In this document: piece by piece, positions 931 through 13,011 of the stretch
Position numbering within the stretch: position 1 is the first letter of the stretch
Layout: each line of letters starts with the position of its first letter
Source of the DNA: a virus
Reading direction: 5' to 3' (one strand)
DNA: 21,375 nt
IMG/VR virus record: IMGVR_UViG_3300050021_000475
Location: 1 to 21,375 of that record
Made by a program: the position numbers and the translations under genes
The notes under the pieces: generated by a model
What the model was told of the DNA's origin: nothing
The model's database searches: none
Seen by the model: only the letters and a program-made list of their open reading frames with translations

Positions 931-1427
931 CTGGCCAACCCGAACAACCGGTGGCGACCCCCTGCGCATGGTGTGGCGGCCTGATGCCTCAGGATGGCTC
1001 TGTTGAGTGCCCGACATGCCGGGAGTCGGACCAAGCAACGCGCATGAAACGCCTCCTGGCGTGGGCCGTGGTCTGTGCGCAGCAGCAGATCGTGGGGCTG
1101 GTGCAGAGCAACCAACTGCCCGCTACCGTGCAGCTCGCCTGTGCGGTCATGTGGCCGATGGCGCATAAGGAAGAGCGCTTTCTGTTCGTTGGTCCACAGC
1201 CGGGGCAGTGGCAGATCTTCCAGTCACTCTCGCCGGCAGCGAAACAACGCATGGACGATGGTGGCGCATTCCAGCAGTGGCAATCGCTGCAGCAGTTGCA
1301 CCTGCAAGTAGGCTTCCGCTGTGGATTCATGGTGCAGGTCGAGCATGATGCGGGTGCGACTGGCGGCACGGGCATCGTGCTGCCGAACGGGCATATACCG
1401 GCAAAGCGGCCGGTGCGTCGAGCATAA
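927..1427 (+). CDS. Zinc-ribbon-like unknown protein, 166 aa
   Basis: The start ATG overlaps the previous stop (ATGA at 927-930). The N-terminus carries CAWCGG and, 12 residues later, CPTC, a two-knuckle Cys4 pattern typical of a small zinc ribbon (about residues 13-31). The remainder is rich in Gln and Trp, without a recognised fold. Such N-terminal zinc ribbons are common in small phage proteins that touch nucleic acid, but the family is not identifiable from sequence alone. The metal-binding reading is moderately supported; any specific function would be a guess. Confidence 0.6.
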   Translation: MTGQPEQPVATPCAWCGGLMPQDGSVECPTCRESDQATRMKRLLAWAVVCAQQQIVGLVQSNQLPATVQLACAVMWPMAHKEERFLFVGPQPGQWQIFQSLSPAAKQRMDDGGAFQQWQSLQQLHLQVGFRCGFMVQVEHDAGATGGTGIVLPNGHIPAKRPVRRA

Positions 1428-1439
1428 GGGGGGTTGGTG

Positions 1440-1748
1440 ATGAACGAGTCACTGGGCGTCGAGATCGAGGCACAGAAAGCAGAGATCGCGGATCGCGAGG
1501 CACAGCGGGACCACGCTCGTGCAGTAGCAGAGGAACTGTGGCGCGTGGCGTCGTGCTACGCCTACACCATCCAGCCTCGTGTGTATTTTGCCGATCTTCC
1601 TGAACCAAGCGACGGTTGGATGGTCGGGGATGATGTTGGTTCTTACAGCCAGGATCTGGCAGAAACCCAGTACAAGCAAGCGAGTCAGAACTTGAAAGAA
1701 ACCCACACGAGTATAGCGAGCCAGTTGGTCGTAGAAACCCAAAGGTAG
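1440..1748 (+). CDS. Unknown coiled-coil protein ending inside the 18-bp-period array
   Basis: ATG 1440 is chosen because AAGGGGGG (1426-1433) lies 6 nt upstream; in-frame TTG 1434 and GTG 1437 are poorer. The N-terminus (VEIEAQKAEIADREAQRD) looks like a charged coiled coil. The last 30 or so residues are a degenerate six-residue repeat of the form xTQxxx-xSQxxx, which is how the 36-bp array reads in this frame. A TAG at 1746-1748, in the third array unit, ends the gene. Beyond it the same frame stays open to a TAA at 2118-2120, still showing the TQ/SQ pattern. The protein may therefore be a truncated form of a once longer repeat protein, or the array may have grown out of its 3' end. Confidence 0.5.
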   Translation: MNESLGVEIEAQKAEIADREAQRDHARAVAEELWRVASCYAYTIQPRVYFADLPEPSDGWMVGDDVGSYSQDLAETQYKQASQNLKETHTSIASQLVVETQR

Positions 1749-1912
1749 AAAGCGAGCCACGGCGGGGCAGCACCCCAAGCAAAAAGAGCGGGCCACAGGA
1801 CGTTAGGAACCCAGAACGGTGGAGCGAGCCACAATCGACAAGAAACCCAAAGGTCACGAGCGAGCCAACACCAACAAGAAACCCAAAGAAGAGAAGCGAG
1901 TGAGTCTTTCGC
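1661..1912. repeat. 18/36-bp-period array of conserved and variable 9-mers
   Basis: There are seven units of exactly 36 bp starting at 1661, 1697, 1733, 1769, 1805, 1841 and 1877. Each unit is AGAAACCCA, nine variable bases, AGCGAGCCA, nine variable bases. Box 1 is exact in five of seven units (variants AGCACCCCA and AGGAACCCA). Box 2 is exact in four of seven (variants end GTCA or GTGA, or read GCGGGCCA). The two boxes resemble each other (AGnnA[C/G]CCA), so the underlying period is 18 bp with 14 boxes and no indel. A degenerate half box (TTACAGCCA) sits one step upstream at 1643-1651. The array covers the 3' end of the preceding gene and the gap before the IS110-like gene. It could be a protein-binding array, a structured RNA or a decayed coding repeat. 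Confidence 0.9.
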
Positions 1913-1926
1913 AGCAGGGGGGATCG

Positions 1927-2838
1927 GTGGAAAGCCAGACAAAGCAAGCCATGAAGACTCTGGTCAACACGTTCTATATGATGCAGAAGCTACGCATCCA
2001 AACCGGCAATCGGATCTGCCGCAACTTCACTGCCCAGCTCGGTCAGGAAGACGGCATGCCGCAGGACGAGTTGACGAGCGATGCGAAGGACACGCTCGAC
2101 ACCTTGAAGGCAGAGCATAAACTTCTCGCTTCCGCCTTGGCGGGCAGCATCAACATCAAGAAGCGGCGCGCGCTACTCGATGAGCATGCCGGCATTCTCA
2201 GCACGCCCTATGAGTACGCGATGGTTGAATCGTACGTGGATTTGGAACATAACGAGGAACGGCTCGGGCGTGAGATCGCCGCGATGGTCGCTGAGCATCC
2301 GCTTTGGGATGGATTCCTTCAGGATGTGAAGGGTATCGGTCCTATCCTCGCTGCGGTGATCATTGCAGAGCTTGACCCGTCTGCGCCCTATCCCTCGTCA
2401 TTCTGGAAATACGCCGGCCTTGACGTGGCAGACGATGGCGCGGGCCGCTCTCGCCGCGCCGAGCACCTCGTCACCCGCGCGTACACCAACAGGGAGGGTC
2501 AGCCGGCTGAGCGGCAATCTATCACTTTCAATATGTTCCTCAAGACAAAGATGATTGGCGTCGCGGGCCCCTGTCTGCTTCGTGCTGGCGGGGAGTATGC
2601 CACGGTGTATCGAGATTACAAGCATCGACTGGAGAATAGACCCGATGTGGGCCTGACGGCGGAAGCTGTGAAGTGGCCGGGGGCCAGCAAATTGCATCGG
2701 CATAACATGGCAATGCGGTATGCCGTGAAGATGTTCCTCAAGGATCTTCATTCGCGGTGGCGTGCTATCGAGGGACTTGCCCCCAGCCTCCCCTACCAGG
2801 AAGCGAAACTCGGCTACCACCACGGGCAGGGAGGGTAG
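1927..2838 (+). CDS. IS110-type transposase C-terminal domain (HhH) protein, lacking the DEDD domain
   Basis: The C-terminal half contains GFLQDVKGIGPILAAVIIAE followed by FWKYAGLDV, the helix-hairpin-helix signature of the Transposase_20 (IS116/IS110/IS902) domain. Further on come a YRDYKHRL segment and a basic helical region (KLHRHNMAMRYAVKMFLKDL), similar to the family's last helices. The N-terminal ~150 residues do not look like the RuvC-like DEDD domain of IS110, and the usual Ser-Gly of the catalytic segment after YAGL is replaced by DDGAGRSRR. It is therefore probably a stand-alone DNA- or RNA-junction binding protein, not an active element. GTG 1927 is preferred because G6 (1917-1922) precedes it; ATG 1951 and GTG 1819 (inside the array) are alternatives. 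Confidence 0.75.
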   Translation: MESQTKQAMKTLVNTFYMMQKLRIQTGNRICRNFTAQLGQEDGMPQDELTSDAKDTLDTLKAEHKLLASALAGSINIKKRRALLDEHAGILSTPYEYAMVESYVDLEHNEERLGREIAAMVAEHPLWDGFLQDVKGIGPILAAVIIAELDPSAPYPSSFWKYAGLDVADDGAGRSRRAEHLVTRAYTNREGQPAERQSITFNMFLKTKMIGVAGPCLLRAGGEYATVYRDYKHRLENRPDVGLTAEAVKWPGASKLHRHNMAMRYAVKMFLKDLHSRWRAIEGLAPSLPYQEAKLGYHHGQGG

Positions 2839-3432
2839 GTGAGAATGGCGGTAGCACCGAAGCGGCGGCCGGTTCCACGGCAGATCCTGCTCTGGGAACA
2901 CCTCAAGCAGCTCGCGCCGCCGCTTGACCTGCAGCACCGCAACGCTGAGGATAGCCGCCGACTTACCGCGCTCGACGAGTGGAACCGCTATCGTATCGAC
3001 GCTGGACCCGAGGAGACGGAGGGCCTGCTGATGACCAGCGACTGCTCGGAGCCCCTGCGCCTGCACACCATGCGAATGGTTGATCTGCTTGGCGCACCCG
3101 AATTGTCACACGACATGTACGTCTACCTGGACGGGTACGAGCGGTGGGTGATGCTCACACCGCGGCAGAAGGCCGTCGCTGAACTGTGGAAGGCGGACCC
3201 GCTTGGCTGTATGATGCTGCGTGGTGAGTATGAGGGTATGAGTCAGGCGAGGACGGCTCGTGTGCTGCATTGCTCGCAGTCCAAGGTCAGTCGACATCTG
3301 AAACAGGCGCACGAGCATCTCGATCAGCGCACGGCCTATTGGAAGGGTGAGTGCCCTGCCGCACGAACTGCGTGGGATGTTCGCGTGAAAGATGAAATAG
3401 TGCTGCTGAAGGAGATGTTCACTAGTGAATGA
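2839..3432 (+). CDS. Putative helix-turn-helix late regulator (sigma region 4-like)
   Basis: This 197-residue protein starts at GTG 2839, one base after the previous stop, with GGAGGG at 2829-2834; ATG 2845 is also possible. Residues about 104-160 (LTPRQKAVAELW, then SQARTARVLHCSQSKVSRHL) read like a sigma-70 region 4 or ArpU/RinA-type helix-turn-helix, in which a 'pre-helix' is followed by a recognition helix (QSKVSRHLKQA). Proteins of this kind commonly sit just upstream of terminase genes and switch on late transcription, and a promoter-containing gap does lie 450 bp downstream. The C-terminal 25 residues (starting CPAARTAW) are shared with the next protein. The regulator role is inferred from motif plus position. 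Confidence 0.6.
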   Translation: MRMAVAPKRRPVPRQILLWEHLKQLAPPLDLQHRNAEDSRRLTALDEWNRYRIDAGPEETEGLLMTSDCSEPLRLHTMRMVDLLGAPELSHDMYVYLDGYERWVMLTPRQKAVAELWKADPLGCMMLRGEYEGMSQARTARVLHCSQSKVSRHLKQAHEHLDQRTAYWKGECPAARTAWDVRVKDEIVLLKEMFTSE

Positions 3433-3835
3433 AGAAGCATTGTTGCGCGCCTTCGCGGTGTTGCGACTGCAGGTAGACGATGGTTCATTCTGGGGGGAAG
3501 ACGGGTTTGGCCCGCATTTGGGTGATGTAGATGATCCCACGACATTCAACCACGAATGGGAACACAAGCGGGTGATTGGGCCGAATGGGCTACGAGATCT
3601 GAGCAAAGCACCGATATATGAGTGCCAGGACTGCCATATCATCGTGCCGGAAAAGATGGTGGCTGTAGAACGGCGGCCTTTATATGGCAGGGACACAGAG
3701 GGAACGACACAACAAATCCAACCGGACATTCCTGCCGGCCAGGAAGACTGCCCCGTCGCACGAGCTCTATGGGAAGATAAGGTGGAAAAGGAAGTAGCAG
3801 CGTTGAAAGAGCGGTTCGCCCGTGAGATCACATGA
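3425..3835 (+). CDS. Unknown protein with CxxC and a C-terminal motif shared with its neighbour
   Basis: The GTG start at 3425 overlaps the preceding gene by 8 bp. The protein has 136 residues. It carries one CxxC (YECQDCHIIVPEK) near the middle, like half of a zinc ribbon, preceded by a His in FNHEWEH. The last ~28 residues (from CPVARALW) match the tail of the upstream HTH protein in pattern CPxARxxWxxxVxxEvxxLKExF, so both probably bind the same partner or arose by partial duplication. No family is recognised. It is the last gene before the 243-bp gap upstream of terS. Confidence 0.6.
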   Translation: MNEEALLRAFAVLRLQVDDGSFWGEDGFGPHLGDVDDPTTFNHEWEHKRVIGPNGLRDLSKAPIYECQDCHIIVPEKMVAVERRPLYGRDTEGTTQQIQPDIPAGQEDCPVARALWEDKVEKEVAALKERFAREIT

Positions 3836-3868
3836 TTGTACAAAGCCGGATGGAGAATAGAGGGACTC

Positions 3869-3898
3869 TTGACGTGCACGCTTCTTCATGCACATAAT
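3869..3898 (+). promoter_or_regulatory. Candidate sigma-70-type promoter upstream of terS
   Basis: TTGACG (3869-3874) and CATAAT (3893-3898) each match 5 of 6 consensus bases and are 18 bp apart. The spacer contains an inverted repeat, GTGCA (3874-3878) and TGCAC (3889-3893), which could be a repressor or activator site. It lies in the only sizeable gap between the early-type genes and the packaging genes, and would give a leader of about 170 nt before terS. Assigned by eye only. Confidence 0.5.
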
Positions 3899-3923
3899 AC
3901 ATGTGGATAAACTATCTCTTCAA

Positions 3924-3960
3924 GCCGCTCGACTCCCCGTCTGAGCGGCGTTTCCTTTGT
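3924..3960 (+). terminator. Hairpin in the terS leader, possible terminator or attenuator
   Basis: GCCGCTC (3924-3930) and GAGCGGC (3943-3949) form a perfect 7-bp GC-rich stem with a 12-nt loop, followed by GTTTCCTTTGT. The T-tract is interrupted, so termination would be weak. It lies just downstream of the candidate promoter at 3869-3898, so it could attenuate late transcription or terminate transcripts arriving from the upstream operon. The rest of the 3836-4078 gap holds only short palindromes such as CTCCGGAG (3973-3980). A packaging (pac/cos) signal could also lie here, but nothing identifies one. Confidence 0.35.
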
Positions 3961-4078
3961 CCCGCGCAGGCTCTCCGGAGCCACGAGGTTGCGACGATCG
4001 AGGCGGTTCCCAATTCCCCCGGGCCATGCCGAAGGGTATCCGTACAGGCTGGCACAGTCGCATAAGTAGGTTATCGTT

Positions 4079-4540
4079 ATGGCCCTTACTCTCAAGCAGC
4101 AACGCTACACCACGGCGTACCTAGGACCAGCTAAGGGCAACGCGACGGAAGCAGCGCGGATTGCTGGGTACCGAGATCCCGAGCAGTCTGGCTGGGAGAA
4201 CAGGCACAACCTAGAGATTGCCGCGCGCATTGAGGAGCGCTTGCTTGCCGAGTCGCTGTCCAGCGGGGAAGTGCTGGCCGAACTGACCGCCATTGCGCGG
4301 GCTGGGTGGACCAACTTCGTCCGGGAGCGCACAGACTACAAGGGCGAAGTGATATCAGCCACGCTGGATCTGGGCGATAAGGTCAAGGCTCTGGAATTGC
4401 TTGGCAAATACCACAAGCTCTTCACGGACAAGACGGAGCACTCGGTTGATGCAAACTTCCTTGACGCGCTCCGCGCCTTCGCCACTGGTGCTGACGAGTC
4501 TGGATCGGCAGGGTCTCCAGAAGCTTCGGACTCAGCCTGA
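4079..4540 (+). CDS. terS: Terminase small subunit
   Basis: The N-terminus (LTLKQQRYTTAYLGPAKGNATEAARIAGY) has the Terminase_2-type pattern: a 'LTxKQxrf..aYL' helix, then N-x-t-x-AA-x-x-AGY, the helix-turn-helix that recognises the packaging site. The central region (EVLAELTAIARAGWTNFV, then KVKALELLGKYHKLF) also matches small terminases, where 'AL.lLgK..klf' is typical. At 153 residues the length is normal. ATG 4079 has a modest SD (AGTAGG, 4065-4070). The 3' end overlaps terL in another frame, as usual. TerS binds phage DNA and hands it to TerL for packaging into proheads. Confidence 0.85.
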   Translation: MALTLKQQRYTTAYLGPAKGNATEAARIAGYRDPEQSGWENRHNLEIAARIEERLLAESLSSGEVLAELTAIARAGWTNFVRERTDYKGEVISATLDLGDKVKALELLGKYHKLFTDKTEHSVDANFLDALRAFATGADESGSAGSPEASDSA

Positions 4541-6091: not shown

Positions 6092-6535
6092 CTAGGCTGC
6101 TTGTTCGTTTCTGTTCAGGAGTTCACGCATCATCGCGAATACCGGCTCTAACTCGGGAAGCATGCGGTACTTGTGTTCGAAGGCTTCCATCTCGCGTTTG
6201 GCATCCGCGAACATCTGGGCCTTGTAGTCCGTATCCGAGTAGACATCCGCCGTCAACCGATAGAATCCCTCAGGACCGCGATCCGGTGTCAAGGACACGA
6301 ACGCTCGTACCTTGATTGGTTCCTGATCGGGGCGCTCAAGCACATGGACCGTAACTCGGATATAGTCGTGTGCCTGGTGAATGCGATACTGCTCCCCGGC
6401 GACCGCATCGTCCCATTCAAAGTAGCGATGGAGTGGTGCATCTTCTGGCCTGGCAGCGTTCACCACATCCGCTGGCTTGAGAACCTTGTTATGATCGGCT
6501 GCCAGTCTGAGCAGTTCATCGCGTAGTGCGCTCAT
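6092..6535 (-). CDS. Unknown phage protein, second gene of the inverted cassette
   Basis: This is a 147-residue soluble protein. It has a helical N-terminus (ALRDELLRLAADHNKVLKPA), a central SPLH-like segment (APLHRYFEWDDAVAGEQYRI), a beta-rich middle (YIRVTVHVLER, VRAFVSLTPDRG) and a helical C-terminus (AMFA-type AKREMEAFEHKYRML). I have an impression that proteins of this layout occur in other phages, but I know of no function for them. Its start overlaps the stop of the upstream gene as ATGA, so the two are coupled. It is antisense to the flanking structural genes, with its stop abutting the left pentamer array. Confidence 0.75.
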   Translation of the reverse strand: MSALRDELLRLAADHNKVLKPADVVNAARPEDAPLHRYFEWDDAVAGEQYRIHQAHDYIRVTVHVLERPDQEPIKVRAFVSLTPDRGPEGFYRLTADVYSDTDYKAQMFADAKREMEAFEHKYRMLPELEPVFAMMRELLNRNEQAA

Positions 6536-7170
6536 GCTGCATCCCTATCTTCGATAGTGAAGAGTCCCCAGCCCATGCCGGCGCTCTTCTTGGAATCCGG
6601 GCGACCCTCGCCAATGCCGACTTGCTCCCCGACGCGGCTGAGCAGGTTGGTAATGTCCGATGCCGTGAACTGGTCCGCGTCAAACCGGATACGCAGGGTG
6701 ATCTTCCAGTTGTGATATGCAGGGCGCACGCAGATGTATGGCTCTCCGGTGCTGGTGCGCGCTACGTCTTCTTGTTTGACCGGATCAGCGTCGATACGAA
6801 CGAGCGGTATCTGTGGCTCCAGTGTGTCCCAGCCGTCGGCGACCACGAAGATCGAGAGTTTGGCCAGCGTCATGGTGAAGCCAACGAGACGACAGGCCGA
6901 GATGAGCGCGGCACGGAATGCGCCCGCGTGTACGCCGTCCCAGCCACCCGGACCACGGTAGCGTGCTTCGTTGAAGAGGTCGTCCGTCAGTTTGGCTTCG
7001 CGGATCTTGCGTGAGGATGCTGCTTTGCCAGTCTCCATTTTCTGCTTGAACTCGTTCTTAAGCTTCGTCGAGATGCGGTGAACCACCAGCGGTGCGGTGC
7101 CCACGAGGGTGAACTCGCCCACTTGCATGTTCGGTGCCTTGATTTGAACTACTGCTTTCCGTGCTGGCAT
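6532..7170 (-). CDS. Unknown protein, first gene of the inverted cassette
   Basis: The start is ATG at 7170-7168, which follows a purine-rich GGGAGAGAAAG leader. The open frame extends to 7260 but that extension only translates the pentamer array. The 212-residue protein has an early beta hairpin (GEFTLVGTAPLVVHRI), a helix after GGWDGVHAGAFRAALISACR, and a glycine-rich C-terminus (VGIGEGRP, then GMGWGLFTI). The glycine-rich end and the 'G.....fR.ali.A' segment loosely recall RAMP/Cas7-type folds, but this is weak. It is translationally coupled to the next gene. No function is assigned. Confidence 0.75.
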   Translation of the reverse strand: MPARKAVVQIKAPNMQVGEFTLVGTAPLVVHRISTKLKNEFKQKMETGKAASSRKIREAKLTDDLFNEARYRGPGGWDGVHAGAFRAALISACRLVGFTMTLAKLSIFVVADGWDTLEPQIPLVRIDADPVKQEDVARTSTGEPYICVRPAYHNWKITLRIRFDADQFTASDITNLLSRVGEQVGIGEGRPDSKKSAGMGWGLFTIEDRDAA

Positions 7171-7191
7171 TATCTTTCTCTCCCGCTGATT

Positions 7192-7430
7192 GGTTAAACC
7201 TGCCCAGTCAAGCCCAGCCCAGTCACACCCCGCTCCGCCCCGCCCTGCCTTGCCGGCCATGTAGTGCCTCGCCTTGTCCAGTCGGGCCTAGCCAGCCCGG
7301 GCCGCGCCTGCCGTGTTCGCCCAGTCGAGCCTCGTCTAGTCGAGCCTCGCCTTTCCTGCCAATCCGTGCCTCGTTTAGCCTAGCTTTGCCTCTCCCTGTC
7401 TCGCCACGCCAAGCCTGCCGTGCATCAGTT
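7192..7430. repeat. Right pentanucleotide-period array
   Basis: This fills most of the 328-bp gap between the two divergent genes. It consists of about 45 pentamers with a recurrent [G/T]CC and two variable bases, with a few one-base phase shifts (for example near 7255 and 7316). On the minus strand it reads GGCNN over and over. Its left edge, GGTTAAACCTGCCC (7192-7205), nearly repeats the edge of the left array at 5981. It ends near 7430, before an AT-richer stretch. It lies in the 5' leader of the leftward transcript, between the promoter at 7475-7483 and the start codon at 7170. Confidence 0.8.
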
Positions 7431-9217: not shown

Positions 9218-11413
9218 ATGGCTCCTGCCACAACCACCAAGCCGGGGAAAAGTGCCCAGCAGTCATATCGGGAACGACTGGAGCAAAGCACACGCAGCAG
9301 GGCCCTCCAAGCCGCCATTCTCGCGCTACTGGCTGCATCTGGCCGCTGGTCCCTGCGACCCGACTACGCCGCCGAGCGCTTCCGCATTATCCATGCCGGC
9401 TCGCGCCGTATCGCGCGTGAGATGGCGCCGTTCATCCTGCGTTCCTTGCCGGGCAGCATTGCCAAGACCGTAGACCTGCAGGCACTCACGAACCAGATTG
9501 AGGCACACCTGGCCGCACCGATCTCCGGCTACGTCGAACAGGCGCTACCCGAACTGGCGGCGAAATATACCGGCCGTGCGTTCAAAGACGCCTTGGCGAA
9601 TCGTGTGGTTCTGATCGTGGCATCGGAGACGCAGCAGGCATTTGTGGCCGTGTTTCGCAGTCTGGCCGGTGATACGGGCACGCTCATTCGGAAGACGACC
9701 TCGGGCAATCCCTGCCCACGGTGCATAAAGTTGGCGGGCGAGTACGAGGCACCGTGGCCCGATGACGTTTGGGACGTCCCGCATCCGAATTGCCTTTGTT
9801 CATTTCGCATAGTACATACTGTCCAAATGAGTACAGACAGACTGGAGGTCTACAGCATGGCACTGACGAAAGACGGGCTTCCAGCCTCGTCCTATCTCGT
9901 CGTGGACAAGCCGGATGAGGTCACGACCTGGCATTTACCGATACGCGATCCGAGCGGGAAGCCGGACCACGGCTTGATGGGCGCCGCACATGCCGCGCTG
10001 ACGGCCCCCAACGGCTATCGTGGCAACAAATACGATGGGCCGAGCAAGTCGGGGGCACTGGCAAAGCTCCGTGCTCTGTACAAGGCCGAAGACCTGCCGT
10101 GGCCCGATACCGCGGCGAGCGCCAATGACCCATACGAGATGGTCGAACGCACTGGCCTGATATTTCGCGCAGCCGAGTACGCTGATAAAGCGGTCACCGT
10201 CACCGACGCCGATCTGGCGACTGCCGTTGCCAACTTCACCGCGCCGCTGGATGCGGAGCTCGAGCACATCAACACGGCCGGCGTGAGGACCTTCCTGGAC
10301 GGCAAACTCGGCCAACTTACGAGCGTCTGGGCCAAGGGGTCGGATCTCTACGGCAAGCTGCTGGTGCCGAAGTGGATGGACCCACTCTGGGCGGAGTTCG
10401 GTCGCAAGGTTTCCGTCGTGTGGAATGACAAGACGAAGAGTCTCCGTCGTATCGGCCTGGTGCTCAATCCGCGGGTGGAAGAGGCAACGGTAATGAGCGC
10501 GTACACCGCCTTTGCCGCCGGGCAGCACGACACGCCGCATGCCACGGACATCCTGCAGCAGATCCATGACCTGGCCGCAACGGCCGGGGCCATTTGTCAG
10601 AAGCCAGAGCAGGCGGCTTCCGCCAATATGGGCGAATCCGAGGGCATGCAAAGGGTGCATGATACGGCGGTCGAGCATGGTGCTATCTGTCCTGGTCTGA
10701 ATATCCCCAGCGCGCCCGAAGTCCAGCAGTTTCACGTCCTGGCGCAGGGCCAGGCACCCCAACGCGCGTTTGGCGCGGGGGGGAAAATGGTCAGTCCACG
10801 GAGGTTTGTTGGTATGCGTCTGGATAGTCTGAAGTTTTGGCGGTCGGTGCCGCGCACCATGCGTGAGGAAGCACGCGATCAAGGTATTCAAGTCCCGGAG
10901 GAGGAAGTCTTCTCGGCTATTGACGATGAGGCTGCGTTTGCCGCAGAGGAAGCGCGCCGCGAACAACTGGCAGAACTTGAAAAGGACAAGGCCGTGGCCA
11001 TCGCTGATCGCGACAAGGCACGGCAGGAACTCTTTGCCGCCACGGCCCAGCGCCTGCAGGGCGAGGCCGCGGCCTTCGCCGACGGGCTGATCACCGGCAA
11101 CAAGCTCTACCCCGCCGAGCGCGAGTCATTCATCGCCAGCTTTACCCAGGCAGGCATGGACGATGCGACACCCGGCAATGCGATCACGTTTGCCAGCGGT
11201 GCGACGGGATCGCGCATAGAGTTGATCAAGGCGCAGTACGCGGCTCGTCCGGCGCATGGACTAACCAAGGAGCAGATCGACGCCCGCGGCAACCTGACCG
11301 TGGTAATGAGCGGCGACACGCAGGCGGACGGCCCCGACGGCTACAGCCACGAGAAGCTGCTGAGCATGACCGACGCCGGCAAGAAATTCCTCTCCATGAA
11401 GAAGCACGCCTGA
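9218..11413 (+). CDS. Fused MuF minor head protein, prohead protease and scaffold
   Basis: This 731-residue protein joins functions usually split in Mu. Residues about 1-205 are MuF-like (Phage_Mu_F) and end with the characteristic CPRC (C166, C169) and HPNCLC (H189, C192, C194) cluster. Residues about 222-300 (HLPIRDPSG, MGAAHAAL, GYRG) resemble the small domain preceding phage proteases (DUF6582-like). Residues about 310-435 (LIFRAAEYADK, AELEHIN with H350, RKVSVVWND, RIGLVLNPRV) match Mu I/prohead-protease proteins. Residues about 530-731 hold a coiled coil (about 570-615) and a C-terminal scaffold-like helix pair (KLYPAERESFIASF). Two internal in-frame starts with SD sites are described separately. 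Confidence 0.85.
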   Translation: MAPATTTKPGKSAQQSYRERLEQSTRSRALQAAILALLAASGRWSLRPDYAAERFRIIHAGSRRIAREMAPFILRSLPGSIAKTVDLQALTNQIEAHLAAPISGYVEQALPELAAKYTGRAFKDALANRVVLIVASETQQAFVAVFRSLAGDTGTLIRKTTSGNPCPRCIKLAGEYEAPWPDDVWDVPHPNCLCSFRIVHTVQMSTDRLEVYSMALTKDGLPASSYLVVDKPDEVTTWHLPIRDPSGKPDHGLMGAAHAALTAPNGYRGNKYDGPSKSGALAKLRALYKAEDLPWPDTAASANDPYEMVERTGLIFRAAEYADKAVTVTDADLATAVANFTAPLDAELEHINTAGVRTFLDGKLGQLTSVWAKGSDLYGKLLVPKWMDPLWAEFGRKVSVVWNDKTKSLRRIGLVLNPRVEEATVMSAYTAFAAGQHDTPHATDILQQIHDLAATAGAICQKPEQAASANMGESEGMQRVHDTAVEHGAICPGLNIPSAPEVQQFHVLAQGQAPQRAFGAGGKMVSPRRFVGMRLDSLKFWRSVPRTMREEARDQGIQVPEEEVFSAIDDEAAFAAEEARREQLAELEKDKAVAIADRDKARQELFAATAQRLQGEAAAFADGLITGNKLYPAERESFIASFTQAGMDDATPGNAITFASGATGSRIELIKAQYAARPAHGLTKEQIDARGNLTVVMSGDTQADGPDGYSHEKLLSMTDAGKKFLSMKKHA
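9857..11413 (+). CDS. Predicted nested protease-scaffold product from an internal start
   Basis: ATG 9857 is in frame with the large gene (Met214) and is preceded by GGAGG at 9844-9848 with 8-nt spacing, a better SD than that of the full-length start. Initiation here would give 518 residues starting MALTKDGLPASSYL, exactly at the boundary after the MuF cysteine cluster. In Mu the protease is a separate protein, so internal initiation would restore that arrangement from a fused gene. In-frame ATG 9827 is an alternative without a good SD. This is a prediction; the sequence cannot prove use. Confidence 0.5.
   Translation: MALTKDGLPASSYLVVDKPDEVTTWHLPIRDPSGKPDHGLMGAAHAALTAPNGYRGNKYDGPSKSGALAKLRALYKAEDLPWPDTAASANDPYEMVERTGLIFRAAEYADKAVTVTDADLATAVANFTAPLDAELEHINTAGVRTFLDGKLGQLTSVWAKGSDLYGKLLVPKWMDPLWAEFGRKVSVVWNDKTKSLRRIGLVLNPRVEEATVMSAYTAFAAGQHDTPHATDILQQIHDLAATAGAICQKPEQAASANMGESEGMQRVHDTAVEHGAICPGLNIPSAPEVQQFHVLAQGQAPQRAFGAGGKMVSPRRFVGMRLDSLKFWRSVPRTMREEARDQGIQVPEEEVFSAIDDEAAFAAEEARREQLAELEKDKAVAIADRDKARQELFAATAQRLQGEAAAFADGLITGNKLYPAERESFIASFTQAGMDDATPGNAITFASGATGSRIELIKAQYAARPAHGLTKEQIDARGNLTVVMSGDTQADGPDGYSHEKLLSMTDAGKKFLSMKKHA
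10814..11413 (+). CDS. Predicted nested scaffold protein from a second internal start
   Basis: ATG 10814 (Met533) is in frame and follows GGAGG at 10800-10804 with 9-nt spacing; ATG 10787 after G7 (10777-10783) is a close second choice. The product would be 199 residues, covering the coiled coil (LAELEKDKAVAIADRDKARQ) and the C-terminal helices. This mirrors Mu gene Z and lambda Nu3, scaffolds made from internal starts at the 3' end of the protease gene. Such scaffolds direct prohead assembly and are cleaved by the protease they share sequence with. Confidence 0.45.
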   Translation: MRLDSLKFWRSVPRTMREEARDQGIQVPEEEVFSAIDDEAAFAAEEARREQLAELEKDKAVAIADRDKARQELFAATAQRLQGEAAAFADGLITGNKLYPAERESFIASFTQAGMDDATPGNAITFASGATGSRIELIKAQYAARPAHGLTKEQIDARGNLTVVMSGDTQADGPDGYSHEKLLSMTDAGKKFLSMKKHA

Positions 11414-11489
11414 CCGGTACGCCAGCCAAGTCCCCTATCTGCTCATGACATACCCGGCGCGCGTACCGCGCCGCTAAGGAGGTTCCCAC

Positions 11490-12245
11490 ATGTCGCTCAA
11501 GCCCCTCATGACCTTTGGTCAGAGTCAACTGCAGCCGTACTACGATCCAAAGAACGCCCGCGAGATCCCAGTTAACCTGGTGGCCGGCACTTATCTGCCG
11601 GGTCAGGTGCTCGGCCAGGTGACCGACGTGCCGGTTGATGCCGTGCAGACCATCACCACTACCGGATCGCCGACCGGCGGCACGTTCACCTTGGCCGGCC
11701 AGCCGATAACCTACCCCGAATCCGCGACCACGGACCCGCTTTCTTCGACATGCACCGTGGCGCAGATGCAGGCAGCCATGGACGCCTTGTATGGCGTCGG
11801 CAACACCATCTGCTCCGGTACCGCATTGCCGGCCGGCTCTATTGCTATCACCTTCACCGGCGATCTGGCGGCCCAGCCAGTCACGGCATTGACGACGATC
11901 GACACTGGCTTGACCGGGGGCAGCACGCCGCACTCCGTGGTCACGCAGACCACCGTGGGTGTGGGCAATACGGGCAGTTACGGCGCCTATGCCACCGGCC
12001 ACGGCGACGGCACGCAGTTGCCCAAGGGGGTGCTGCGCTACGGCTGCACGGTGGATTCGGCGGGCAACATTTCGATCAGCAATGAGATCCCCGGCCTCAC
12101 GCAGCTCTCGGCCCCGATGTTCTGGGCCGGTACCTTCCGGACGGATGATCTGGTTGGCCTCGATTCAGGCGGCCTGGCGGCGTGGGTCGGCGCGCACTTG
12201 GTCGAAGGCACGATCGTCAGCGGCGTGGTAGTCATTCCTGCGTAA
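11490..12245 (+). CDS. Head decoration protein with an inserted beta domain
   Basis: This 251-residue protein starts at ATG 11490, preceded by an excellent SD (AAGGAGG, 11476-11482). A GC-rich hairpin (GGCGCG 11456-11461, CGCGCC 11467-11472) lies just upstream. The N-terminus (YYDPKNAREIPVNLVAGTYLPGQVLGQVT) and C-terminus (YATGHGDGTQLPKGVLRYG, VGAHLVEGTIVSGVVVIP) fit lambda gpD-like/DUF2190-type decoration or head-stabilising proteins that precede the major capsid gene. Between them, residues about 55-145 (GGTFTLAGQPITY ... ITFTGDLAAQPV) form an inserted beta-rich domain that resembles one in the sheath gene. Its stop nearly abuts the stop of the convergent endonuclease gene. Confidence 0.75.
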   Translation: MSLKPLMTFGQSQLQPYYDPKNAREIPVNLVAGTYLPGQVLGQVTDVPVDAVQTITTTGSPTGGTFTLAGQPITYPESATTDPLSSTCTVAQMQAAMDALYGVGNTICSGTALPAGSIAITFTGDLAAQPVTALTTIDTGLTGGSTPHSVVTQTTVGVGNTGSYGAYATGHGDGTQLPKGVLRYGCTVDSAGNISISNEIPGLTQLSAPMFWAGTFRTDDLVGLDSGGLAAWVGAHLVEGTIVSGVVVIPA

Positions 12246-12246
12246 T

Positions 12247-13011
12247 TCAATGGTCTGGAAAGTTCAGGTGCGCGCGAGAGCCAAGCAGTTCTCGTGCCTT
12301 CGCATCATAGGCACGGGCGGCTTCTTCTGCGGTGGCGTAGTAGCCAATGTAGTGTGTTTTGCACTGCTGAGTGATTACGGCACGATACCTGCCAGTTTGA
12401 GGGTGAGGGCCCCAAACGCCGTTGAATCCGGTTCGATTGGTTGATATCAGGACGCTTCGTGTAGGTGCCTGGGCACTGGCGATTGGCGCATCACTTGATA
12501 GGTACGAATCCGCACTAGTCCGTGCAAACTCCCCGTGGGCCAATGTAGCTGCTTGGTCGTATGCGGCGGCCGCCTCCAATTCGGTGCGAAACACGCCAAT
12601 GTGGCGAATGGCACCATTGGCACGCAGTTGGGCACTCCATGGGTTTCGTTTCCTGTTCGTGGCGTAAACGCCCTTGTAGCCCGACGAATTGTTCGCGTAG
12701 CGCGTCGTGTTGGCCTTGTTCTGCGACGCTGTAGCACTGCGCATGTTGCATCGCCGGTTGTCCAGTCCATCCCCATTTTCGTGATCCACCAGCACATCAG
12801 TATCGATACCCATCAAAAGCCGGTGCATCAGCAGGATCCGTCGTGTTCCATCTGGCATCGATACTGAGTGGTTGGCGGCATACCAGAGTTCCCGATGCTT
12901 GGTGCGCGATTGGCGCATGGCATACCACCGCAAATGCCGCACGAGCGGCCAATCTTCCTCGTCTATGATCGCTTGTTTTCCCTGAGTCAAGAGAACGGCG
13001 ATGGTGCCCAT
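12247..13011 (-). CDS. HNH homing-type endonuclease with two AP2 DNA-binding domains
   Basis: This 254-residue protein reads against the structural genes. Residues about 60-105 carry the HNH_3-type nuclease core (LMHRLLMG, VDHENGDGLDNRRCNMR, SQNKANT). Two AP2 domains follow: SGYKGVYATNRKRNPWSAQL...GVFRTELEAAAAYDQAA and TGFNGVWGPHPQTGRYRAVI...GYYATAEEAARAYDAKA. ATG 13011-13009 has SD AAGGAGG. HNH-AP2 proteins are selfish homing endonucleases found in many phages, usually free-standing between virion genes. It occupies almost the whole gap between the decoration and capsid genes, so it probably arrived after the head module formed. Confidence 0.92.
   Translation of the reverse strand: MGTIAVLLTQGKQAIIDEEDWPLVRHLRWYAMRQSRTKHRELWYAANHSVSMPDGTRRILLMHRLLMGIDTDVLVDHENGDGLDNRRCNMRSATASQNKANTTRYANNSSGYKGVYATNRKRNPWSAQLRANGAIRHIGVFRTELEAAAAYDQAATLAHGEFARTSADSYLSSDAPIASAQAPTRSVLISTNRTGFNGVWGPHPQTGRYRAVITQQCKTHYIGYYATAEEAARAYDAKARELLGSRAHLNFPDH

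What the first reader, a model, noticed from the sequence alone, without database searches (positions are those of the whole stretch)
1643..1912. Strict 18-bp array of conserved and variable 9-mers next to an IS110-like gene
Fourteen boxes (AGAAACCCA and AGCGAGCCA alternating, related as AGnnA[C/G]CCA) occur at exactly 18-bp steps with no indel, while the 9 bases between them are nearly unconserved. Recent tandem duplication would conserve all 36 bp, so selection seems to act on the boxes and on the spacing only. 18 bp is six codons, so a coding constraint is possible (TQ/SQ repeat on the plus strand; Gly-Phe-Leu/Gly-Ser-Leu on the minus strand, open across all units), but plus frames contain stops. 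The array lies immediately upstream of a gene for an IS110-type HhH domain, which raises the possibility that this protein binds the array, or its transcript, through the boxes. I know of no named system with this architecture.
Basis: partly seen in the sequence, partly recalled or inferred. Interest (0 to 1): 0.85.

Follow-up and report, generated by a model that had tools for sequence, protein, structure and literature searches.

The report
Phage TIGR-Tas guide-RNA array (TasA type)
The repeat array is a phage-borne TIGR array, a string of seven 36-base guide-RNA units with two 9-base guides each, sitting just before the gene for its partner protein TasA; this makes it a new example of an RNA-guided DNA-binding system described in 2025, not an unknown kind.

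Summary
From 1643 to 1900 two alternating 9-bp boxes stand at exact 18-bp steps, separated by variable 9-mers. It is a TIGR array (Tandem Interspaced Guide RNA; Faure et al. 2025, PMC12045711) of seven units: edge repeat AGCGAGCCA, spacer A, loop repeat AGAAACCCA, spacer B. [quoted passage not shown] The next gene (1927-2838) encodes its Tas protein: it passes the curated NCBIfam TIGR-Tas cut-off, its model's best PDB matches are TasH and TasR, and I see no nuclease domain, so it is the TasA type. Strict arrays with these boxes accompany tas in 24 of 28 homologous loci, always on the tas strand. In pooled arrays, edge-repeat positions 2/3 of one copy covary with positions 7/6 of the previous copy, while loop repeats pair internally. 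That is the pairing of a mature tigRNA cut inside edge repeats. Coding-repeat and IS110 readings fail. Natural targets were not found. Novelty is modest: a new member of a known kind. In passing, the same contig carries a second RNA-guided locus, VIPR (about 6535-7426); two other Tas contigs do too.

The parts
1643..1651 (+). 5'-truncated edge repeat (ttacAGCCA): first edge, only its box C half is conserved
   Evidence: in 22 arrays the box before the first loop keeps positions 5-9 (14, 19, 17, 19 and 15 of 22) but not 1-4 (3-7 of 22)
1652..1678 (+). unit 1: spacer A GGATCTGGC, loop AGAAACCCA (1661-1669), spacer B GTACAAGCA
   Evidence: register from covariation
1679..1714 (+). edge AGCGAGTCA, then unit 2: spacer A GAACTTGAA, loop AGAAACCCA (1697-1705), spacer B CACGAGTAT
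1715..1750 (+). edge AGCGAGCCA, then unit 3: spacer A GTTGGTCGT, loop AGAAACCCA (1733-1741), spacer B AAGGTAGAA
1751..1786 (+). edge AGCGAGCCA, then unit 4: spacer A CGGCGGGGC, loop AGCACCCCA (1769-1777), spacer B AGCAAAAAG
1787..1822 (+). edge AGCGGGCCA, then unit 5: spacer A CAGGACGTT, loop AGGAACCCA (1805-1813), spacer B GAACGGTGG
1823..1858 (+). edge AGCGAGCCA, then unit 6: spacer A CAATCGACA, loop AGAAACCCA (1841-1849), spacer B AAGGTCACG
1859..1894 (+). edge AGCGAGCCA, then unit 7: spacer A ACACCAACA, loop AGAAACCCA (1877-1885), spacer B AAGAAGAGA
1895..1900 (+). 3'-truncated edge repeat (AGCGAG): last edge, only its box D half is conserved
   Evidence: in 18 arrays the box after the last loop keeps positions 1-4 (17 of 18 each) and drops off after that (2 to 9 of 18)
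1927..2838 (+). tasA: 303-aa TIGR-associated protein, solo Nop/IS110-type RNA-binding domain, no nuclease domain seen (GTG start at 1927)
   Evidence: NCBIfam NF052498.1 132 bits, cut-off 100; PF02371 2e-6; PDB TasH/TasR by sequence and by fold

Best explanation
This is a TIGR-TasA locus in a tailed phage. The array at about 1643-1900 is transcribed on the plus strand as a precursor. It is cut inside each edge repeat (AGCGAGCCA) into seven 36-nt tigRNAs. In each tigRNA the box C half of one edge pairs with the box D half of the next, and the loop repeat (AGAAACCCA) closes on itself, so the two halves form equivalent binding sites for a TasA dimer. Spacers A and B then pair with opposite strands of an 18-bp DNA target; I infer a top strand of spacer A followed by the reverse complement of spacer B, with a 0-2 bp gap. 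With no nuclease domain, the complex most likely binds, opens and bends the target without cutting it, and so blocks transcription or replication of a competing mobile element. Shown here: array anatomy, register, pairing pattern across homologous arrays, family and fold of the protein, and lack of a recognisable nuclease. Inferred from the founding paper: transcription, processing, RNA binding and DNA binding. Least certain: the biological role.
For: The unit matches the published definition: two alternating 8-12 nt repeats, 9-nt spacers, 36-nt unit, CCA box C ends, truncated edges at both ends. The protein passes the curated TIGR-Tas model, 132 bits against a cut-off of 100, and fails the IS110 equivalog, 34 against 140. 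Its model (pLDDT 79) has TasH 9w04 (E 8e-7) and TasR 9mty among its top PDB matches, ahead of IS621. Strict arrays accompany tas in 24 of 28 homologous loci from IMG/VR and genome contigs, always on the tas strand, though neighbouring genes are not shared. Over 342 adjacent edge pairs, position 3 of copy n+1 pairs with position 6 of copy n in 330, against 312.1 (sd 2.4) in within-locus shuffles, 0 of 2000 reaching it; position 2 of n+1 with 7 of n: 261 against 248.2, 0 of 2000. For 3-6 the same copy (341 of 378, 340.1 shuffled), n-1 and n+2 show nothing. Loop positions 2 and 7 pair within one copy: 342 of 385 against 329.6, 0 of 2000.
Against: No expression data. Box D reads AG here, where the TasR structure has UG; the paper says the motifs diverge but covary. 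No intrinsic terminator follows the array, whereas published arrays usually end in one; here the array seems to read straight into tasA. The within-locus covariation comes mostly from one locus, L004, with little from L001 and L002; L013 and L043 show the compensated T-A form throughout. The window's own seven edges hardly vary, so its pairing rests on homologues. No target was found: own-contig matches at up to 2 mismatches are no more common than in control geometries, pooled contigs the same, and exact IMG/VR hits are comparable with control-geometry hits.
Confidence: 0.92

Rival explanations
1. DNA-level binding array (iteron- or operator-like): the neighbouring protein or another phage protein binds the boxes as double-stranded DNA at 18-bp phase, to control tas or replication.
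For: Strict phase, conserved boxes, and a position directly upstream of tas.
Against: The covariation pairs position 3 of copy n+1 with position 6 of copy n, 36 bp apart, and not within one copy; that is RNA pairing across a processed unit, which a DNA site does not predict. Spacers stay 9 nt but change completely. Arrays also lie downstream of tas, or 5.7 kb away in G003.
Confidence: 0.03
2. Coding repeat: an 18-bp (six-codon) peptide repeat in an ORF, for example the tail of ORF 1440-1748 or an N-terminal extension of the tas frame.
For: ORF 1440-1748 runs about 105 nt into the array and one minus-strand frame is open through it.
Against: Plus frames contain stops in the window; relatives have stops in most frames and spacings of 17, 19 and 20 that shift frame while the boxes persist.
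Confidence: 0.01
3. Remnant of an IS110 transposon with a bridge RNA upstream of its transposase gene.
For: PF02371 match; PHROG family phrog_4285 is labelled transposase; IS621 is among the fold matches.
Against: IS110 equivalog not met (34 against 140 bits). The N-terminus is a helix, not a DEDD RuvC-like fold. TasH/TasR outrank IS621. A bridge RNA is a single two-stem unit, not a periodic array, and the array RNA is not unusually structured (z 0.56).
Confidence: 0.01
4. TIGR-TasA locus whose role is regulation of the phage's own genes or its integration (for example as an integrase aid), not competition with other elements.
For: The founding paper proposes this for TasA because of the strong DNA bend. 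The gene lies next to an HTH/sigma-region-4-like protein and close to the terminase genes.
Against: No excess of spacer matches to the phage's own contig over control geometries in the window or relatives; but most contigs are fragments, so this is weak.
Confidence: 0.3

Closest known systems
TIGR-TasA systems (Faure et al. 2025, PMC12045711)
   Same: Two alternating short repeats, 9-nt spacers, 36-nt unit, truncated edge repeats at the ends, array beside a solo-Nop Tas gene, location in a tailed phage.
   Different: Box D is AG, not the UG of TasR arrays; no terminator after the array; array directly upstream of tasA. Whether this contig or clade is in the paper's tables could not be checked.
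TasR and TasH (nuclease-bearing Tas proteins; PDB 9mty, 9w04, 21kl)
   Same: Closest solved folds and natural sequence relatives; same edge/loop pairing topology.
   Different: No RuvC or HNH domain was recognised here.
IS110/IS621 bridge-RNA recombinases
   Same: Shared Nop/Transposase_20 RNA-binding domain.
   Different: No DEDD domain, no bridge RNA, multi-unit array instead.
Box C/D snoRNP proteins (Nop5, PDB 3pla)
   Same: Nop-type fold and box C/D logic; weak fold match, E 0.42.
   Different: Guides DNA recognition, not RNA methylation; no K-turn, L7Ae or fibrillarin.

Membership tests
TIGR-Tas | two distinct alternating 8-12 nt repeats with about 9-nt variable spacers (36-nt unit) | tested here: met
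   caller score 122.7 against shuffled maximum 10.8
[quoted passage not shown]
   1643 TTACAGCCA and 1895 AGCGAG; same pattern in most relatives
TIGR-Tas | Tas protein with Nop domain | tested here: met
   NF052498.1 above curated cut-off; PDB TasH/TasR top fold matches
TIGR-Tas | box C/D pairing across processed edge repeats and within loop repeats | tested here: met
   met in pooled homologous arrays; the window alone varies too little to test
TIGR-Tas | terminator after the array (typical, not required, in the founding paper) | tested here: not met
   none found at the array end; terminator-like sites in 1300-4100 do not exceed chance
TIGR-Tas | array processed to 36-nt tigRNAs bound by Tas | not testable with these tools
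   needs RNA sequencing
TIGR-Tas | dual-strand 18-bp DNA targeting | tested here: inconclusive
   no natural target above control geometries
TasA subtype | Nop domain without RuvC or HNH nuclease | tested here: met
   no nuclease family hit; the NCBIfam hit is a 215-position model matched at residues 10-279; N-terminus helical in the model
IS110 transposase | IS110 equivalog score and DEDD catalytic domain | tested here: not met
   34 bits against cut-off 140; no such fold at the N-terminus
CRISPR array | single repeat of about 25-36 nt with spacers of similar size and cas genes | tested here: not met
   two 9-nt repeats, no cas gene among proteins scanned

The most novel reading that the evidence does not exclude
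Phages of this group carry two unrelated, apparently nuclease-free RNA-guided DNA-binding systems, TIGR-TasA and VIPR, and use both as programmable repressors in conflict with other phages. VIPR was shown to do this in 2026 (PMC13142463), and that paper's main text does not mention TIGR. The role of TasA is an open question, and this pairing would give it a function and a setting in which to test it.
Probability: 0.3. Interest if true: 0.72.

Novelty: new member of a known kind. Interest (0 to 1): 0.45.

Why it matters
The natural role and targets of nuclease-free TasA systems are unknown. This locus adds a phage example with a compact seven-unit array. The homologue set gives a purely sequence-based demonstration that edge repeats pair between neighbouring copies and loop repeats within a copy, which fixes the guide register and predicts the target of each unit without an experiment. 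It also places TIGR-TasA in the same phage as VIPR, a system already tied to conflict between phages.

Tried and rejected
Self-targeting: 385 A-loop-B units against their own contigs or loci, gaps 0-2; matches at up to 2 mismatches are no more common for the expected geometry (5) than for three others (10, 11, 7) or for edge-flanking control pairs. Cross-targeting over 718 kb of pooled contigs: no exact hit, 1-mismatch counts 4 against 4, 1, 7 and 2 in controls. Exact scans of IMG/VR for five predicted targets gave 0, 0, 2, 13 and 6 stretches; 12 of the 13 are one conserved prophage stretch, and some of the six (three independent sequences) look like intrinsic terminators, a convergent sequence; control geometries gave 2 and 3. 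Coding repeat, IS110 element and CRISPR were rejected as above. Rfam has no match in the window. The array RNA is not unusually stable, z 0.56. A first array caller was too permissive, chaining across whole loci and shuffles alike, and was replaced (then 42). No array of this type was found with tas in L012 (whole contig searched) or L039 (contig begins inside tas); L040 has a diverged one and L005 a four-box start at its contig end.

Full report
Observation. The window is a complete IMG/VR virus record of 21,375 bases with phage packaging and head genes: small terminase, large terminase, Mu-type portal and E-type major capsid. At 1643-1900 two 9-bp boxes alternate at exact 18-bp steps with 9 variable bases between them. 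The outermost boxes are half boxes: TTACAGCCA at 1643 keeps only the 3' half of AGCGAGCCA, and AGCGAG|TGA at 1895 keeps only the 5' half.

Identification. These features are those of a TIGR array as defined by Faure et al. 2025 (PMC12045711; [quoted passage not shown] 8-12 nt repeats; 9-nt spacers; truncated edges at both ends; and a neighbouring gene for a Nop-domain Tas protein. The gene at 1927-2838 passes the curated NCBIfam model TIGR_Tas_endo with 132 bits (cut-off 100) and fails the IS110 equivalog with 34 bits (cut-off 140). Phmmer against PDB sequences finds 9mty (TasR, E 6.6e-7) and 21kl (TasH, E 1.6e-4); a chain named dTor_9x57R, 6xr1, also appears at E 5e-7 over one helix, which I take to be unrelated. 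The AlphaFold2 model (pLDDT 79, 13 sequences) has TasH 9w04 as best PDB match (E 8e-7) and TasR 9mty close behind, then IS621. No nuclease family is hit and the N-terminus is helical, so it is the TasA type. The NCBIfam name 'endonuclease' should not be taken literally here. PHROGs labels the family transposase, which is misleading.

Relatives. Fifteen IMG/VR loci and thirteen genome-contig loci encode homologues at roughly 26-49% identity. A box-chain caller, whose best score in 637 kb of shuffled sequence is 10.8, finds arrays at 20 or more in 12 of 15 and 11 of 13 within 5 kb of tas, and in a thirteenth IMG/VR contig 5.7 kb away. All are on the tas strand, with the same or slightly changed boxes and different spacers; four IMG/VR loci (L008-L011) carry the same array and were counted once in pooled tests. 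The caller's matrix was tuned on these loci, but a matrix-free count of period-36 columns picks out the same kind of array in most of the IMG/VR loci. None of the other window genes tested has a homologue in these contigs (the gene at 6535-7173 was tested separately, see below), so array and tas travel together through otherwise different phages.

Register and RNA pairing. I pooled 378 edge and 385 loop boxes from 21 non-redundant loci. Position 3 of edge copy n+1 pairs with position 6 of copy n in 330 of 342 cases, against 312.1 (sd 2.4) after shuffling within loci; none of 2000 shuffles reaches it. Position 2 of n+1 with position 7 of n gives 261 against 248.2, again none of 2000. For positions 3 and 6 the same copy, the n-1 neighbour and the n+2 neighbour show nothing; for positions 2 and 7 the same copy shows a weak excess (283 against 274.2, 30 of 2000). 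In loop repeats positions 2 and 7 pair within one copy (342 of 385 against 329.6, none of 2000). The TasR cryo-EM structure shows exactly this: the edge pair forms between two different edge repeats of one processed tigRNA, the loop pair within the loop. The lack of signal at n-1 excludes mere similarity of neighbours. Within-locus signal is mostly from L004; L013 and L043 carry the compensated T-A pair throughout. The window's own boxes vary too little to test alone. This fixes AGCGAGCCA as edge and AGAAACCCA as loop, giving seven units.

Array ends. Across 22 arrays the box before the first loop keeps positions 5-9 but not 1-4; across 18 arrays the box after the last loop keeps positions 1-4 and loses most of the rest. 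The window follows both rules.

Mechanism. By homology (not shown here) the array is transcribed, processed in edge repeats to 36-nt tigRNAs, and bound by a TasA dimer; spacers A and B pair with opposite strands of an 18-bp target. From the reported 8-nt 3' overhangs I derived the target top strand as spacer A followed by the reverse complement of spacer B. With no nuclease domain, binding and bending are the likely effect. The founding paper suggests blocking of transcription or replication of competing elements, or help to integrases; neither is shown for TasA.

Targets. None was found above control levels in the own contigs, in 718 kb of pooled contigs, or by exact scans of IMG/VR. The own-contig test is weak because most contigs are fragments. 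The failure agrees with the founding paper, which says genuine targets are hard to identify.

Alternatives. Coding repeat: contradicted by stops and frame-shifting spacings in relatives. IS110 element: contradicted by model scores and fold. DNA-binding array: does not predict pairing between copies 36 bp apart. CRISPR: wrong repeat and no cas genes seen.

Second system in the same contig. The minus-strand gene at 6535-7173 and the GGC-pentamer run at 7198-7426 match VIPR (PMC13142463), a phage RNA-guided system reported in 2026. A profile of seven homologues hits PDB 36pp, 'SUSP1 Vipr protein', at 1.3e-9. A low-confidence model (pLDDT 48) has RAMP proteins of CRISPR complexes as its top fold matches, none below E 0.001. 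All eight homologues examined have a pentamer run on the same strand. Contigs G006 and G013 carry both systems too. I did not establish a base rate, so whether this exceeds chance is open.

Verdict. A well-supported TIGR-TasA locus: a new member of a known kind, not a new kind of system. I could not check whether this contig or clade is already listed in the founding paper's tables.

Noticed in passing
window 6535-7173 (-) and 7198-7426; also L006 9737-10360 (-) with 10399-10496, and L015 495-1277 (+) with 1790-2120: A second RNA-guided locus: a Vipr-family protein (phrog_4652; profile hit to PDB 36pp SUSP1 Vipr, E 1.3e-9) beside a run of GGC-NN pentamers on the same strand, as in VIPR systems (PMC13142463). 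Three of the 14 Tas-bearing viral contigs (window plus 13) carry it, so these phages hold both TIGR-TasA and VIPR.
   Followed up: partly
L093-L097 (Cyanophage Cy-LDV1; Gordonia phages ODay, Pipp, Ecliptus, UmaThurman); also Mycobacterium phages: Vipr homologues annotated as hypothetical proteins; the five loci read have a GGC pentamer run on the same strand within about 1.5 kb. The Mycobacterium phage hits were not examined for pentamer runs.
   Followed up: partly
window 12247-13011 (-): AP2-domain (7e-11) and weak HNH match: a homing-endonuclease-like gene inserted among the head genes.
   Followed up: no
window 1440-1748 (+): A plausible upstream ORF whose last 105 nt or so run into the TIGR array and stop inside unit 3; no homologue in the Tas-bearing contigs.
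   Followed up: no
L091 (Microcystis phage Mvi-JY20, PP438412) and L092 (Arthrobacter phage Talia1610, PQ559666): Distant tas homologues annotated as hypothetical proteins in isolated phages; their surroundings were fetched but not searched for arrays.
   Followed up: no
window 1751-1786 (unit 4): The predicted target CGGCGGGGC-CTTTTTGCT occurs in IMG/VR phage contigs, in three independent sequences inside what look like intrinsic terminators; probably convergent sequence, as control geometries also give hits.
   Followed up: partly
G010 (L012) 11220-12134 (-): A second, weak tas-like ORF in a contig that has tas but no detected array.
   Followed up: no
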